A DNA stretch of 64,000 nucleotides from Actinomycetospora corticicola (GTDB lineage: Bacteria; Actinomycetota; Actinomycetes; Mycobacteriales; Pseudonocardiaceae): the NCBI RefSeq assembly GCF_013409505.1, contig NZ_JACCBN010000001.1:4154001-4218000 (forward strand), written 5' to 3'. Under the pieces are notes generated by a model. That model had not been told where the DNA came from. It was given only the letters and a program-made list of their open reading frames with translations, and searched no databases. The translations under genes were made by a program, and so were the position numbers. Within the stretch, counting starts at the first letter, position 1. Every line of letters starts with the position of its first letter. Shown here one piece after another: positions 45,559-49,722 of the stretch.

Positions 45559-46673
45559 TGCCGGCCCGGCGCAACCGCCTCGGGCGCGGTGACAAGGTCG
45601 TGGTCATCTCCCCCTACGGCAGCCGCCTCGGCGTCTACGACCTGGAGACCGGTGAGGTCACCGACGTACCGCCTGCGTTCCGGGCGACGTTCGTGGCCGA
45701 GCTCGACGAGTGGCTGGCCGCGCACGGTCTCGACCCGTTCCCCGGCTTCGGGGAGAACGGCGCCACGACGCGGCCCCCGAGCCGACGGCAGCGGATGCGC
45801 GACACGCTGAGCTTCCAGCGACCGCGCGACACCGCGGCGCCGCCGCCACCGGCGGCCCCGCGCGGCCCCGACCCGACCCGTCGTCGGGAACCCGCGGCGT
45901 TGGAGGCGGGCGTGCCGACCCCCACCGGCGGCTGGTCGGCCGACTCGGCCGACGGCTACCGCTTCGACGCGTTCGACGACGGCGGGCCGCGTGCCGCCGG
46001 TCACCCGCGGCCCGACCGGCGGCCCGGGGACGAGTGGACGGACCTCGCCCGCTACACCCCCGACCACGGCCTCGCCCGGCGGGCCGCCGCGGCCCGACGG
46101 GACGGCAGGCGCGAGGAGGACGTGGCCCTGCGGCGGCAGGCGGACGCCCGGCTGGAGGTCGCGCAGTCGTTGAGCCGGGAGCTCGCCGCGCCGGTGTCGA
46201 GCCGGATCGGGCGCGTCGCGCGCTGGCGGATGCTGCACGGGATCGACCTCGTGATCGGCCGCGAACCGGTGGTCCTCGACCACCTCGTCATCTGCCCGGG
46301 CGGCGTGTTCGTGCTGGAGGACCGGCCGCAGCCCGGGAGCAAGGTGCACGCCTCCACCGACGGGCTCGAGGTCGACGGCCAGCACGTCGACCTGGCGCGC
46401 ATCCGCACGATCGGCGAGGAGGTGGCGGATCGGCTCGCCGAGGCCATCGCGCTCGCCGCGGGCTTCGAGGAGGTGCTCAACCCGCCGACGGTGACCCCCG
46501 TCGTCGTGGTGGTGGGCGCGACGATCGTCAACCACAGCCGCCCCCGCGGGGTGATCGTCACCCGGGCCGGCGACCTGGGACGCGCCCTGCGCAGCCGGGG
46601 TGACCGGCTGACCGCGGCCGCCATCGAGGAGACCTACGCGGTGGCGCGGCGCTCGGACACCTGGACCTCGTGA
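45558..46673 (+). CDS. NERD-domain-like protein
   Basis: Encodes 371 aa. A disordered, Pro/Arg-rich N-terminal half (about 1-215) precedes a C-terminal domain (about 225-365) that resembles NERD nuclease-related domains: RMLHGIDLVIG, VVLDHLVICPGGVFVLED, then a DGQHVD segment. NERD domains normally have a D-x-K or E-x-K catalytic triplet after the FVLxxK strand; here the strand reads FVLEDRPQPGSK, so the Lys is displaced and catalysis is doubtful. The gene is coupled at both ends (TGATG and GTGA overlaps), so it is functionally tied to the radical-SAM gene downstream. Confidence 0.55.
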   Translation: MPARRNRLGRGDKVVVISPYGSRLGVYDLETGEVTDVPPAFRATFVAELDEWLAAHGLDPFPGFGENGATTRPPSRRQRMRDTLSFQRPRDTAAPPPPAAPRGPDPTRRREPAALEAGVPTPTGGWSADSADGYRFDAFDDGGPRAAGHPRPDRRPGDEWTDLARYTPDHGLARRAAAARRDGRREEDVALRRQADARLEVAQSLSRELAAPVSSRIGRVARWRMLHGIDLVIGREPVVLDHLVICPGGVFVLEDRPQPGSKVHASTDGLEVDGQHVDLARIRTIGEEVADRLAEAIALAAGFEEVLNPPTVTPVVVVVGATIVNHSRPRGVIVTRAGDLGRALRSRGDRLTAAAIEETYAVARRSDTWTS

Positions 46674-47731
46674 CCGTCTCCGACCTCCTCGACGTGCGCA
46701 CCGTGTGGGCCGAGCCCGCGTCGCTGGTGTCGATGCGCGGCCAGGAGGTGCTCGCGCGGTTCCCCGACGCCGAGATCCGCGAGGTCGCCTCGCACTGGGC
46801 GATCCCGGAGCTGCACGGCAACGCGGGGAACGTCTCGCGGTGGGTGCGGGTGAAGGCGGAGAACCTCGTCCTCGGCGAGAAGAAGTCGCTGACGGTGCGG
46901 CCCAACGGGCGCTCCGCGGACTTCATCGCGCCGTCCTCGGCCAACGGGTGCGCGATGGCGTGCGCCTACTGCTACGTGCCCCGCCGCAAGGGGTACGCGA
47001 ACCCGATCACGGTGTTCACCAACGTCGACGACATCCTGCGGGCCGTCACCCGCCACCTCGCCCGCACCGGCCCGAAGCCGGAGCCCAACCAGTGCGGCAC
47101 CGCATGGGTCTACGACCTCGGGGAGAACTCCGACTGCTCGGTGGACGCGCTGGTCAGCGACGGCGTCGCCGACGCGGTCGCCCACTTCCGCGGCCTCGCC
47201 GGGGCCCAGGCCTCGTTCGCCACCAAGTACGTCAACCGCGGCCTGCTCGACCTCGACCCGCAGGGCTCCACCCGGATCCGGTTCTCTCTCATGCCGCCGG
47301 AGGACGCGCAGCTGCTGGACCTGCGCACCTCGTCGATCGACGAGCGCATCGGCGCCGTCGACGACTTCCTGACGGCGGGCTACGAGGTCCACCTGAACTT
47401 CTCCCCCGTCGTGCTGCGCGAGGGCTGGCAACGCCGCTGGGCGACCCTGCTCGACGAGCTGTCCGACCGGCTCTCGCCCGCCGCGCGCGAGCAGGCGGCG
47501 TGCGAGGTCATCCTGCTGACCCACAACGAGGGACTGCACGAGGTCAACCTCGGCTGGCACCCGAAGGCCGAGGACGTGCTCTGGCGGCCCGAGGCGCAGG
47601 AGGCCAAGACGTCGCAGAACGGGCAGGACAACGTGCGCTACCGGGTGGACGTCAAGCGCCGCGCCGTGGCCCGGATGCGGGAGCTGATCGGCGTCCACGC
47701 CCCGTGGCTCACGGTCCGGTATGCCTTCTGA
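46670..47731 (+). CDS. Spore photoproduct lyase-family radical SAM protein
   Basis: Encodes 353 aa from GTG 46670. The radical SAM cluster motif is ANGCAMACAYCYVPRR (Cys at about 93, 97, 100), a C-x3-C-x2-C pattern typical of SPL. Further conserved parts are SWxRVKAENLVLGEKKSL, FATKYVN and LLTHNEGLHEVNLGWHP. SPL reverses the thymine spore photoproduct with SAM; actinobacterial homologues exist without demonstrated activity. Overlap with the NERD-like and MFS genes suggests a single transcript. Neighbouring dinB fits a DNA-damage theme. Confidence 0.83.
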   Translation: MTVSDLLDVRTVWAEPASLVSMRGQEVLARFPDAEIREVASHWAIPELHGNAGNVSRWVRVKAENLVLGEKKSLTVRPNGRSADFIAPSSANGCAMACAYCYVPRRKGYANPITVFTNVDDILRAVTRHLARTGPKPEPNQCGTAWVYDLGENSDCSVDALVSDGVADAVAHFRGLAGAQASFATKYVNRGLLDLDPQGSTRIRFSLMPPEDAQLLDLRTSSIDERIGAVDDFLTAGYEVHLNFSPVVLREGWQRRWATLLDELSDRLSPAAREQAACEVILLTHNEGLHEVNLGWHPKAEDVLWRPEAQEAKTSQNGQDNVRYRVDVKRRAVARMRELIGVHAPWLTVRYAF

Positions 47732-48890
47732 CATCGCCGTCGACCGACGCGCGCGGGGCGCGGTCATGGCGCTGTTCGCGGTCAACGGCGCCACCTACAA
47801 CTCGCTCGTGCCCCGCTTCCCCGCGCTGCGCGACGGCCTCGGGCTCTCGAACGCCGAGCTCGGGACCGCGATCGCCGCGTTCCCGGCGGCCGCCCTGCTC
47901 GTCGGGGTGCTGGCCGGCCCGCTGGTGGCCCGGTTCGGCAGCGGGCGGGTCGCGGCGTCGGTGTCCCTGCTCGGGGCGCTGCTGCTGCCGCTGGTGGCGG
48001 TGGCGCCGGGCTGGTGGGCGCTCGCGGCCGCCCTGTTCGTGCTCGGCGTGACCGACGCCTGGACCGACGCCGCGATGAACGCGCAGGGCCTCGTCGTCCA
48101 GGAGCGCTACGGCCGCTCGATCATCAACGGCCTGCATGCCACGTGGAGCGTCGCCGCGGTCGGCGCGGGCCTGCTCGGCGCGGGGGCCGCGGGGCTCGGC
48201 GTGCCCATCGGGTGGCACCTGGCCGCGGTGTCCGTGGCCCTGCTGGTGACCTCCGCCGTGGCCTGGGTGTTCACGGTGCCGGACCCCGTACACCACACCG
48301 AGGAGTCCTCGGCCGGCGTCCGCTCGGTGCTGCGGTCGCGACCCGCCGTGCTCGGGCTGCTCGCGATCGCGGGCCTCATGGTGTGCTCGGGCGCGGTGGA
48401 GGACTCGTCGGCCTCGTGGGGCGCGGTGTACCTGCGCGACGACCTCGGAGCGGGCGCCTTCGTCGCCGGCCTGCCCTTCGTCGCCTTCCAGGTCTTCATG
48501 ACGGCGGGCCGCATCGGCGGCGACCGCGTGGTCGACCGGTTCGGGGCGGTGCGCGTGGCCCGGCTCGGTGCGCTCGTCGCCGCCGTGGCGCTGGCGGTGG
48601 CGCTGCTCGTGGCGCACCCCGTCGCGGCGGTGGTCGGCTGGGCCGTCGCCGGGCTGGGCGTGGCGACCCTCTTCCCGCTCGCGTTCGCGGCCGCCGGTGC
48701 GGTGCCGGGGGTCCGGCCGGGCGACGGGATCGCCGTCGTGGGGTTCCTCGCCCGGCTCGGCTTCCTCGTGACCCCGCCCGTGATCGGCGCGATCGCGGAC
48801 GCCTCGACGGTGGGCACGGGACTCCTGCTCGTCCCGGTCGCGGCCCTCGGCGCGGCGGCGCTCGCCCGGTCGTTGCGGCCGGCCCGCTGA
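47721..48890 (+). CDS. MFS transporter
   Basis: Encodes 389 aa with about 12 membrane helices, of the compact MFS group resembling YbjJ-like transporters. It has a VARFGSGRV loop between helices 2 and 3 and GGDRVVDRFGAVRV between helices 8 and 9. It overlaps the radical SAM gene by 11 bp. The substrate is unknown. It stops 14 bp before the left arm of the long inverted repeat. Confidence 0.82.
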   Translation: MPSDIAVDRRARGAVMALFAVNGATYNSLVPRFPALRDGLGLSNAELGTAIAAFPAAALLVGVLAGPLVARFGSGRVAASVSLLGALLLPLVAVAPGWWALAAALFVLGVTDAWTDAAMNAQGLVVQERYGRSIINGLHATWSVAAVGAGLLGAGAAGLGVPIGWHLAAVSVALLVTSAVAWVFTVPDPVHHTEESSAGVRSVLRSRPAVLGLLAIAGLMVCSGAVEDSSASWGAVYLRDDLGAGAFVAGLPFVAFQVFMTAGRIGGDRVVDRFGAVRVARLGALVAAVALAVALLVAHPVAAVVGWAVAGLGVATLFPLAFAAAGAVPGVRPGDGIAVVGFLARLGFLVTPPVIGAIADASTVGTGLLLVPVAALGAAALARSLRPAR

Positions 48891-48904
48891 CCGGCCCCCT
48901 CCGC

Positions 48905-49026
48905 GGCAGCGAAGCGTCGTTGCTGTCATCCAGCGGCAGGATCTCCCCGTTGCTGGTCCAGAGCCCCGACCCGGACGCCGGCCATACGTCACTGCCGGCA
49001 CTGGACGCCAGGAACGCCACACCGTC
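48905..49026 (+). repeat. Left arm of long inverted repeat flanking GIY-YIG-like gene
   Basis: The 122-bp arm pairs with 49587-49712. It has two conserved blocks: outer 48905-48946 (38/42 to its partner) and inner 48977-49026 (46/50), with a diverged 30-nt spacer. Inside each arm the two blocks are themselves weakly inverted copies of one another (shared CTGCCG, CTGGA, AACG). Confidence 0.85.
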
Positions 49027-49063
49027 GCGGCCCGCGCTCCCTGCCCGCGGCAGACTCGTCGTC

Positions 49064-49588
49064 GTGACCCCCGACGAGGCCGCCGCCGTGCTCTCCGCCG
49101 CTCCGGGCGACCTCGACGGGACGGTCGCCGACCTCCCCGGCGCGCCCGGGCTCCACGCCTGGTGGACGGTCGAGCCGCTCGGTCTCGGCGGCGTGGTGCA
49201 CGACGGCCGGACCCTGCTCGACGTCGGCGCCGCGCGCATGCTGCGCAACCGCATCCGTCGACAGGACCTCTACCGCACCGGGGTGTCGCGCCTGCGCCGC
49301 GTGCTGGCCGGACTGCAGCTCGACGAGCTGGCGCTCGCCCCGACGTGGGCGGCCGAGGTGGTGCTGCCGAAGGCCGACGAGGAGCGGCTCTCCGCCTGGA
49401 TGCGCGAGCGGCTGCTGCTGACGGTCCTTCCCGACGACGGGGCGGCGGACCTGCTCGGGCCCGTCGCGGTCCGGCTCGGGGAGACCGCTCTGGCGTCGGA
49501 GGCGGCGGCCGGAGCGGAGGAGCGGTTCGTCGCCGCGGCCGGCGCGAAGCCGGTGCGGCCCGTCGGCGAGGTGTTCCGCCGCCCCTGA
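49064..49588 (+). CDS. GIY-YIG-like nuclease-family protein inside inverted-repeat cassette
   Basis: Encodes 174 aa from GTG 49064. A GIY-YIG-like core is suggested by GAPGLHAWWTVEPLG (GIY position), GRTLLDVGAARMLRNRI (YIG position and Arg helix), then SRLRRVLAGLQLDEL and a VVLPKADEERLSAWMRERLLLTVLP segment found in actinobacterial members. The YIG tyrosine position is Asp (LDVG), so catalysis may be altered. The gene fills the space between two inverted-repeat arms: its start lies 38 bp after the left arm and its TGA overlaps the first base pair of the right arm. Function unknown. Confidence 0.5.
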   Translation: MTPDEAAAVLSAAPGDLDGTVADLPGAPGLHAWWTVEPLGLGGVVHDGRTLLDVGAARMLRNRIRRQDLYRTGVSRLRRVLAGLQLDELALAPTWAAEVVLPKADEERLSAWMRERLLLTVLPDDGAADLLGPVAVRLGETALASEAAAGAEERFVAAAGAKPVRPVGEVFRRP

Positions 49589-49712
49589 CGGTGTGGCGTT
49601 CCTGGCGTCCGGCGCCGGCAGTGACGCACGGCCGGCATCCGGGACGGTGGCCCGGGACCGGCGACGACGTGGCGATCCTGCCACTGGATGACAGCAATGA
49701 CGCTCCGCTGCC
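49587..49712 (-). repeat. Right arm of long inverted repeat flanking GIY-YIG-like gene
   Basis: This 126-bp arm is the inverted partner of 48905-49026: inner block 49587-49636, outer block 49671-49712. It starts within the stop codon of the GIY-YIG-like gene and ends 11 bp before the stop of the convergent DksA/TraR gene. Confidence 0.85.
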
Positions 49713-49722
49713 ACGGGGGCAC

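What the first reader, a model, noticed from the sequence alone, without database searches (positions are those of the whole stretch)
48905..49712. GIY-YIG-like gene enclosed by a pair of ~125-bp inverted repeats
Two arms (48905-49026 and 49587-49712) are inverted copies, 84/92 identical across two conserved blocks. They abut the gene closely: its TGA overlaps the right arm. Within each arm, the outer and inner blocks are also weakly inverted copies of one another, giving a nested palindrome. No transposase is present and I know no element class of this form. The unit could be a single-gene mobile cassette of about 0.8 kb with a nuclease-like protein, or a regulatory cruciform. The YIG Tyr is replaced by Asp, so the protein may bind rather than cut DNA. 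The boundary between MFS and DksA/TraR genes is a plausible insertion point.
Basis: partly seen in the sequence, partly recalled or inferred. Interest (0 to 1): 0.8.

Follow-up and report, generated by a model that had tools for sequence, protein, structure and literature searches.

The report
Stop-codon hairpin repeats flanking conserved gene
The inverted repeats around this gene are not the ends of a mobile cassette but copies of a short hairpin repeat that occurs over a hundred times in this bacterium, usually about a dozen bases after a gene's stop codon, much like the REP repeats of other bacteria; the gene in between is an old resident that looks like a disabled DNA-cutting enzyme.

Summary
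The inverted arms and the GIY-YIG-like gene are real, but the cassette reading fails. The genus is Actinomycetospora, not Pseudonocardia. Each arm is two head-to-tail units of a dispersed ~53-nt repeat. A 27-nt core of it (up to 3 mismatches) occurs 121 times in this genome and never in the reversed-pattern control. Most copies follow a same-strand gene (61 of 81); of 77 such copies with both neighbours called, 63 start 5-17 nt after its stop codon (16.1 expected by uniform placement in the same gaps), behind a C-rich spacer. The left arm trails the MFS stop, the right arm the convergent DksA/TraR stop; hence "inverted repeats enclosing a gene". The first hairpin covaries across species and folds better on the mRNA strand. 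The gene is in 18 of 18 genus genomes; in 10 it overlaps or nearly abuts the MFS gene with no room for a repeat. It has lost residues its paralogues keep at GIY-YIG motif positions. Best reading: a REP-like 3'-UTR RNA hairpin family, mobiliser unidentified, probably acting on translation termination, coupling or mRNA decay. Function is inferred, not shown.

The parts
47721..48890 (+). MFS transporter gene; its TGA (48888-48890) is followed after 12 nt by the left outer element
   Evidence: Pfam MFS_1 E 1.3e-23; position
48903..48955 (+). left outer 53-nt element (type A)
   Evidence: model R2 hit 48899-48959, 67.9 bits; this copy and the right outer one are 2 of the 41 rows of alignment A1 from which R2 was built
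48975..49027 (+). left inner element (type B variant), head to tail with the outer one
   Evidence: weak model hit 48971-49031, 10.4 bits, E 0.61; a type-B DNA query has 26 matches in the genome at E up to 0.1, 40 of 80 candidates scored, the two arms included
49064..49588 (+). 174-aa GIY-YIG-like protein, probably without nuclease activity; conserved in the genus
49586..49638 (-). right inner element (type B), overlapping the stop codon of the GIY-like gene
   Evidence: model hit 49582-49642(-), 22.5 bits, E 0.0006
49662..49714 (-). right outer 53-nt element (type A), 8 nt after the DksA/TraR-like gene's stop on the minus strand
   Evidence: model hit 49658-49718(-), 79.2 bits
49723..50055 (-). 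DksA/TraR-type zinc-finger protein gene (start codon not determined)
   Evidence: Pfam zf-dskA_traR E 7e-11

Best explanation
The arms are copies of a REP-like dispersed element of Actinomycetospora. The unit is stop codon, then a C-rich spacer of about 11 nt, then GTGGCAGCGAAGCGTCGTTGCTGTCRTCCAGTGGCAGGAACGCCACATCGTCG. As RNA it can form two hairpins and an unpaired TCGTCG tail. SHOWN: copy number, prevailing orientation, spacing, covariation of the first hairpin across species, better predicted folding on the mRNA strand, and the presence of the gene without the repeats in the more distant relatives. SHOWN here: the left arm trails the MFS gene and the right arm the convergent DksA/TraR gene, so inverted repeats enclose the gene by geometry. 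INFERRED: the elements spread as mobile DNA by an unidentified route and were kept where they sit in 3' untranslated mRNA. There the first hairpin lies at the edge of a terminating ribosome, so the likely effects are to slow release, to separate translation of the next gene, or to block 3' exonucleases, as described for E. coli REPs.
For: Copy number: 121, 95, 89 and 139 matches in G000, G002, G008 and G013, 54 in G009, 14 in G017, 8 in G010, 0 in the other 11 of 18; reversed-pattern control 0 in all 18. Position: 61 of 81 G000 copies follow a same-strand gene against 14 an opposite-strand gene, and 46 of 81 start 5-17 nt after its stop. Of 77 copies (four genomes) that follow a same-strand gene and have both neighbours called, 63 lie at 5-17 nt against 16.1 (sd 3.2) expected for uniform placement in the same gaps. 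Spacer 59% C over 75 copies against 38% C after 28 window stops without an element. Structure: on 34 copies from 17 genomes, 36 double-change cells against 14.5 shuffled, 0 of 500 shuffles; pair 8-28 is CG 15, GU 11, UA 7, AU 1 with none broken. Sense MFE -20.7 against antisense -16.2 and shuffled -16.6 kcal/mol in G000; sense lower in 76 of 81. History of the locus and of two others.
Against: No expression data, so any effect on translation or decay is unproved. Copies within one genome are related, so 76 of 81 is not 81 independent tests, and within-genome covariation is not significant (127 of 500 shuffles reach the double-change count). The cross-species rows were found with a model that contains the structure, which leans towards it; one of the five measures, further pair types, does not exceed its shuffles (17 against 16.8, 296 of 500). 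The second hairpin is less well kept (83.5% of cells paired). In G000 14 of 81 copies follow an opposite-strand gene; in all, 14 of 123 fall inside a gene called by my simple caller, 5 of 15 in G017 (rows). No mobiliser was identified: no Y1 transposase family match in this genome; other transposases were not tested. For RbfA the empty site with the same next gene is seen in one relative only (G017), so gain and loss cannot be told apart there.
Confidence: 0.78

Rival explanations
1. Single-gene mobile cassette: the arms are terminal inverted repeats that move the GIY-YIG-like gene.
For: Inverted arms close to the gene; the gene is nuclease-like.
Against: Gene in 18 of 18 genus genomes, beside the MFS gene in 18 and DksA in 17; no room for a repeat in the MFS-gene gap in 10 of 18; the core occurs 121 times in this genome, which holds one match to the protein, so the other copies stand without it.
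Confidence: 0.02
2. The elements are transcription terminators of the upstream genes without a U-tract.
For: Sense-oriented hairpins just after stop codons; 21 of 81 G000 copies lie between convergent genes with the element in the sense of the upstream one; in nine distant species the GIY-DksA gap holds a different terminator-like palindrome (by eye).
Against: No T-run follows in the 44 copies printed (by eye). Copies between co-oriented genes are common (40 of 81 in G000), and 23 of the 123 have the next start codon 0-60 nt downstream, leaving little room for a promoter. No termination data.
Confidence: 0.22
3. DNA-level elements (protein-binding sites or cruciforms, or purely selfish DNA) with no role as RNA; placement after stops is only insertion preference or tolerance.
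For: High copy, palindromic, with hits only in the genus among 120 sampled family genomes apart from one weak hit; present or absent at gene junctions between relatives.
Against: Prevailing orientation to the upstream gene, tight stop spacing and G-U pairs that work on one strand only are not expected of a double-stranded site. A single-stranded DNA transposition intermediate could explain the last point.
Confidence: 0.2

Closest known systems
REP elements (repetitive extragenic palindromes), E. coli and other bacteria
   Same: Short palindromic repeats in high copy, extragenic, mostly behind genes; E. coli REPs within 15 nt of the stop are reported to stall ribosomes (PMC12306157, passages seen, citing Liang 2015, which I did not read).
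   Different: Two-hairpin 53-nt unit, a dominant sense orientation, a narrow 10-13 nt mode, a C-rich spacer, an actinobacterial host. Whether E. coli REPs share any of the first four was not compared here.
CGTC-tagged REPs (Di Nocera et al. 2013, PMC3733652; abstract, two sections and passages seen)
   Same: Palindromic repeats near 3' ends of genes, without a dedicated transposase; a CGTC motif at one end and a CCA beside a stem also occur here.
   Different: Their stems are 8-9 bp with loops of 4-5; here 10 bp/7 nt and 5 bp/6 nt, with the CGTC at the 3' end of the unit. The word actinobacteria does not occur in that paper's main text.
MIRUs of mycobacteria (PMC12548453, passage seen; Supply 1997 not read)
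   Same: Short actinobacterial repeats described as apparently mobile and inserted at start codons, that is at gene junctions.
   Different: MIRUs carry an ORF coupled at -4 nt to the next gene; 7 of 23 copies tested have an ORF coupled at -4 or -1. Sequence was not compared.
GIY-YIG nucleases (Pfam GIY_YIG_2, UvrC N-domain)
   Same: Weak profile and fold similarity of the enclosed protein.
   Different: The motif tyrosines and other residues kept in paralogues are replaced.

Membership tests
REP elements (general) | short palindrome in high copy (>100) outside genes | tested here: met
   121 pattern matches, control 0; 5 of 81 G000 copies, 14 of 123 in four genomes, inside called genes
REP elements (general) | located downstream of coding regions | tested here: met
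   61 of 81 G000 copies follow a same-strand gene; 63 of 77 at 5-17 nt after its stop, 16.1 expected
RAYT-mobilised GTAG REPs | terminal GTAG and a Y1 (RAYT) transposase in the genome | tested here: not met
   no GTAG in the consensus; no PF01797 match in this genome, while 6 of 14 control genomes rang
CGTC REPs | CGTC at one end, 8-9 bp stem, 4-5 nt loop, CCA tail at the other end | tested here: inconclusive
   conserved TCGTCG tail and CCA present, but stem and loop sizes and polarity differ (against the text seen)
MIRU | internal ORF overlapping the next start codon by 4 nt | tested here: not met
   7 of 23 copies with a near downstream start have an ORF coupled at -4 or -1
MIRU | sequence similarity to mycobacterial MIRUs | not tested
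   no MIRU sequence was fetched
Gene cassette or MITE with captured gene | gene and arms move together | tested here: not met
Intrinsic terminator | GC-rich hairpin followed by a T-run | tested here: not met
   no T-run after the hairpins in the 44 copies printed (by eye)
GIY-YIG nuclease (enclosed protein) | catalytic Tyr (GIY), Tyr (YIG), Arg, His/Tyr, Glu (motif list recalled) | tested here: not met
   YIG Tyr is Asp/Glu in 18 of 18; GIY Tyr present in 4 of 18; the NH and the VE block before PPLN of the paralogues are replaced; Arg kept
GIY-YIG fold (enclosed protein) | profile or fold match | tested here: inconclusive
   below Pfam cut-off for the window protein, 18 of 18 orthologues match at E up to 1; best Foldseek hits are UvrC GIY-YIG domains but at E 0.43 and above, none at E 0.001 or better

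The most novel reading that the evidence does not exclude
A stop-codon-positioned mRNA element class in Actinobacteria: an oriented two-hairpin unit placed a dozen bases after the stop codons of around a hundred genes, which separates genes that used to overlap and sets release, coupling or decay of the upstream message. The element keeps its place at some orthologous gene ends while its sequence type changes from species to species (TrkA, RbfA and DksA sites, types by eye), which would point to a partner in trans evolving with it.
Probability: 0.3. Interest if true: 0.7.

Novelty: new variant of a known kind. Interest (0 to 1): 0.45.

Why it matters
It turns an apparent new element class into a clear example of REP-like repeats in a genus for which I found no description of them (searches, listings only; other wordings not tried). 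The tight stop-codon spacing, prevailing orientation and placement at gene junctions make this a convenient natural series for testing whether hairpins after stop codons control translation termination and coupling. It also shows that a pair of such 3' elements on convergent genes can imitate the ends of a mobile cassette.

Tried and rejected
Mobile cassette with terminal repeats: rejected. Known RNA family: none at the locus (only a mir-3960 match far below its gathering score). RAYT mobilisation: no Y1 transposase family match. Solved relatives by sequence: nothing convincing (best E 0.8). Saccharopolyspora transcriptome paper PMC3610266 opened as a lead: nothing on such repeats in the abstract and passages seen. 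Within-genome covariation was not significant; cross-species was. NCBIfam gave no useful match for the protein (one at E 0.094).

Errors of my own: and the first protein used a wrong reading frame of the gene and are replaced; one search used the same wrong frame for its GIY row (its synteny of the other genes stands; repeated in the right frame). Model R1 had its second stem shifted by one column and was replaced by R2. The draft also gave 18 genomes for the covariation set; it is 17 (the G003 hit had an indel and was left out). Neither changes the odds.

Rows dropped: alignment A1 holds 41 of the 44 copies; left out were L098 and two palindromic hits in L102. A4 holds 34 rows: the 2 window elements and 32 of the 55 hits (full-length, ungapped, spread over genomes). 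The spacing test used 77 of 123 copies: those not inside a called gene, with a same-strand upstream gene, a downstream gene called and no overlap. Copies fetched were the better-scoring ones, not a random sample.

Full report
OBSERVATION. The two inverted arms exist at the stated places: blocks 48898-48950/49667-49719 (53 nt, 87% complementary) and 48966-49036/49577-49647 (71 nt, 86%), 84% over 133 nt as one match. The gene runs 49064-49588; its TGA lies in the right arm. The outer and inner blocks of an arm are same-strand relatives in head-to-tail order rather than inverted copies (the left inner one is weak, E 0.61).

THE ARMS ARE A GENOME-WIDE REPEAT. A search with the left arm gave 49 matches in the window's own genome, the two arms included, with only 40 of 251 candidates scored. 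A 26-nt core with up to 3 mismatches gave 39 places and 0 in the reversed control. A better 27-nt core gave 121 in G000, 95 in G002, 89 in G008, 139 in G013, 54 in G009, 14 in G017 and 8 in G010, none in the other 11 genomes of the genus, control 0 in all 18. A covariance model gave at least 149 hits in each of the four rich genomes (cap 150 scored candidates) and 6-86 in the other 14; the best hits there are diverged types. In 120 genomes of the family, sampled with stricter filters, 5 had a match at E up to 1e-5: 4 of the same genus and one weak single hit. The genus is Actinomycetospora by named relatives; equal contig lengths tie G008 to A. soli, G002 to A. chiangmaiensis, G013 to sp. NBRC 106378, G017 to A. 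termitidis and G005 to A. endophytica.

POSITION. With a simple codon-usage gene caller of my own, 37 of 44 copies followed a same-strand gene. In an enlarged set of 123 copies from four genomes (control on reversed sequence: 0), 61 of 81 G000 copies followed a same-strand gene, 14 an opposite-strand gene, 5 fell inside a called gene and 1 was unresolved; 46 of 81 began 5-17 nt after the stop, mode 10-13. In the other three genomes 26 of 42 followed a same-strand gene, 6 an opposite-strand gene and 9 fell inside a called gene. Against uniform placement in the same gaps, 63 of the 77 that could be tested lay at 5-17 nt where 16.1 (sd 3.2) were expected. Distances to the downstream gene are broad (from slight overlap to over 600 nt), an internal control. 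The spacer is 59% C and 4% A over 75 copies, against 38% C after 28 window stops without an element.

STRUCTURE. The consensus folds as two hairpins. Within the genome covariation is not significant. Across 34 copies from 17 genomes it is: 36 double-change cells against 14.5 and covariation score 0.320 against 0.182, neither reached in 500 shuffles; 7 pairs with a double change against 4.8 (4 of 500); further pair types not above shuffles (296 of 500); and far above all slid versions on score. Hairpin 1 is 95.3% paired, hairpin 2 83.5%. The rows were found with a model that holds this structure, so the set leans towards it. G-U pairs favour the mRNA strand: sense -20.7, antisense -16.2, shuffled -16.6 kcal/mol in G000, sense lower in 76 of 81; 21 of 21 in G002, 13 of 15 in G017, 5 of 6 in G013. 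Copies are related by descent, so these are not independent counts.

WHY IT LOOKS LIKE A CASSETTE. The left arm's first unit starts 12 nt after the MFS stop; the right arm's, on the minus strand, starts 8 nt after the DksA/TraR stop. The two neighbours converge on the GIY-like gene, so their 3' elements face each other.

HISTORY OF THE LOCUS. In the right frame the protein is in 18 of 18 genus genomes, with one match in 16 and two in 2. The MFS neighbour is found in all 18 and DksA in 17; in the MAG G011 no DksA is found in the 842 bases downstream. In 10 of 18 the MFS-gene gap is -7 to 11 nt (start codons estimated) and the gene-DksA gap, in the 9 where it can be read, 33-53 nt. In G009, G010 and G005 the gaps are 47-59 and 56-78 nt, with an element hit on the DksA side (G009 58.0 bits, G010 30.9, G005 21.0). 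In G017 they are 62 and 61 nt, with a different palindrome by eye and no model hit at E up to 0.05. In the four rich genomes they are 142-185 and 113-134 nt. The simplest reading is that the elements arrived around a resident gene. Elsewhere: after RbfA, G000, G013 and G002 have a type-A element and G008 a type-B one, 77-83 nt from stop to a shared point of the next gene, while G017 has 2 nt; G009, G010, G005 and the 10 distant genomes show none by eye but have a different next sequence. After TrkA, type A in G000, G002 and G013, a degraded one in G008, another type in G017, G009 and G010, and none of these types in G005 and the 10 distant genomes, some of which have an unrelated palindrome (types judged by eye).

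THE PROTEIN. Pfam GIY_YIG_2 at 20.9 bits, below its cut-off of 22.4; all 18 orthologues match, best E 2.2e-6. AlphaFold2 model pLDDT 83.9; best Foldseek matches are UvrC GIY-YIG domains, weak (E 0.43 and above). Paralogues L039, L040 and L165 keep GLY/GVY, YVG, NH and a VE block before PPLN. In the 18 orthologues YVG is D/E-V/L-G, the GIY Tyr is present in 4, and the NH and PPLN-block residues are replaced. A loss of nuclease activity is inferred.

MECHANISM. E. coli REPs within 15 nt of a stop codon are reported to stall ribosomes and lead to mRNA cleavage (PMC12306157, passages). The same geometry here, with copies between co-oriented genes where the next start is 0-60 nt away (23 of 123), favours an RNA role in termination, coupling or decay over a terminator. 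No RNA data were available. How the elements spread is unknown: no Y1 transposase match in this genome, as the paper on CGTC REPs reports no dedicated transposase for those (PMC3733652).

VERDICT. A real repeat pair, wrongly read as one unit. The broader find, a stop-codon-positioned REP-like family in Actinomycetospora, is a new variant of a known kind. I found no description of it in four library searches (listings only).

Noticed in passing
G000 chromosome, about 0.5-2.0 Mb: Elements are sparse there: 5 of 77 listed places in 1.5 Mb of 6.17 Mb; the list is incomplete.
   Followed up: partly
L029, L030, L032-L038 (GIY-DksA gap): In nine distant species the 33-53 nt gap between the convergent genes holds a different palindrome that also carries stop codons at its ends (by eye).
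   Followed up: no
L039, L040, L165: Paralogues of the enclosed protein with an apparently intact GIY-YIG motif set.
   Followed up: partly
window 46670-47731: Spore photoproduct lyase family gene (TIGR03886, E 2.7e-173) just upstream of the MFS gene.
   Followed up: no
L116 1501-1561, L134 1501-1561: In G005 (A. endophytica) these two copies fold into one long hairpin of about -49 to -50 kcal/mol instead of two short ones.
   Followed up: no
L072 and L102: In three G000 copies the stop codon lies inside the first bases of the element (distance -4), as if the repeat supplied it; L072 and one in L102 are two of them, with the variant start GTGACAG in L072.
   Followed up: no
L031 1-842: In the MAG G011 the GIY-like gene is followed by sequence without a DksA match, the one break of this gene order among 18.
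   Followed up: partly
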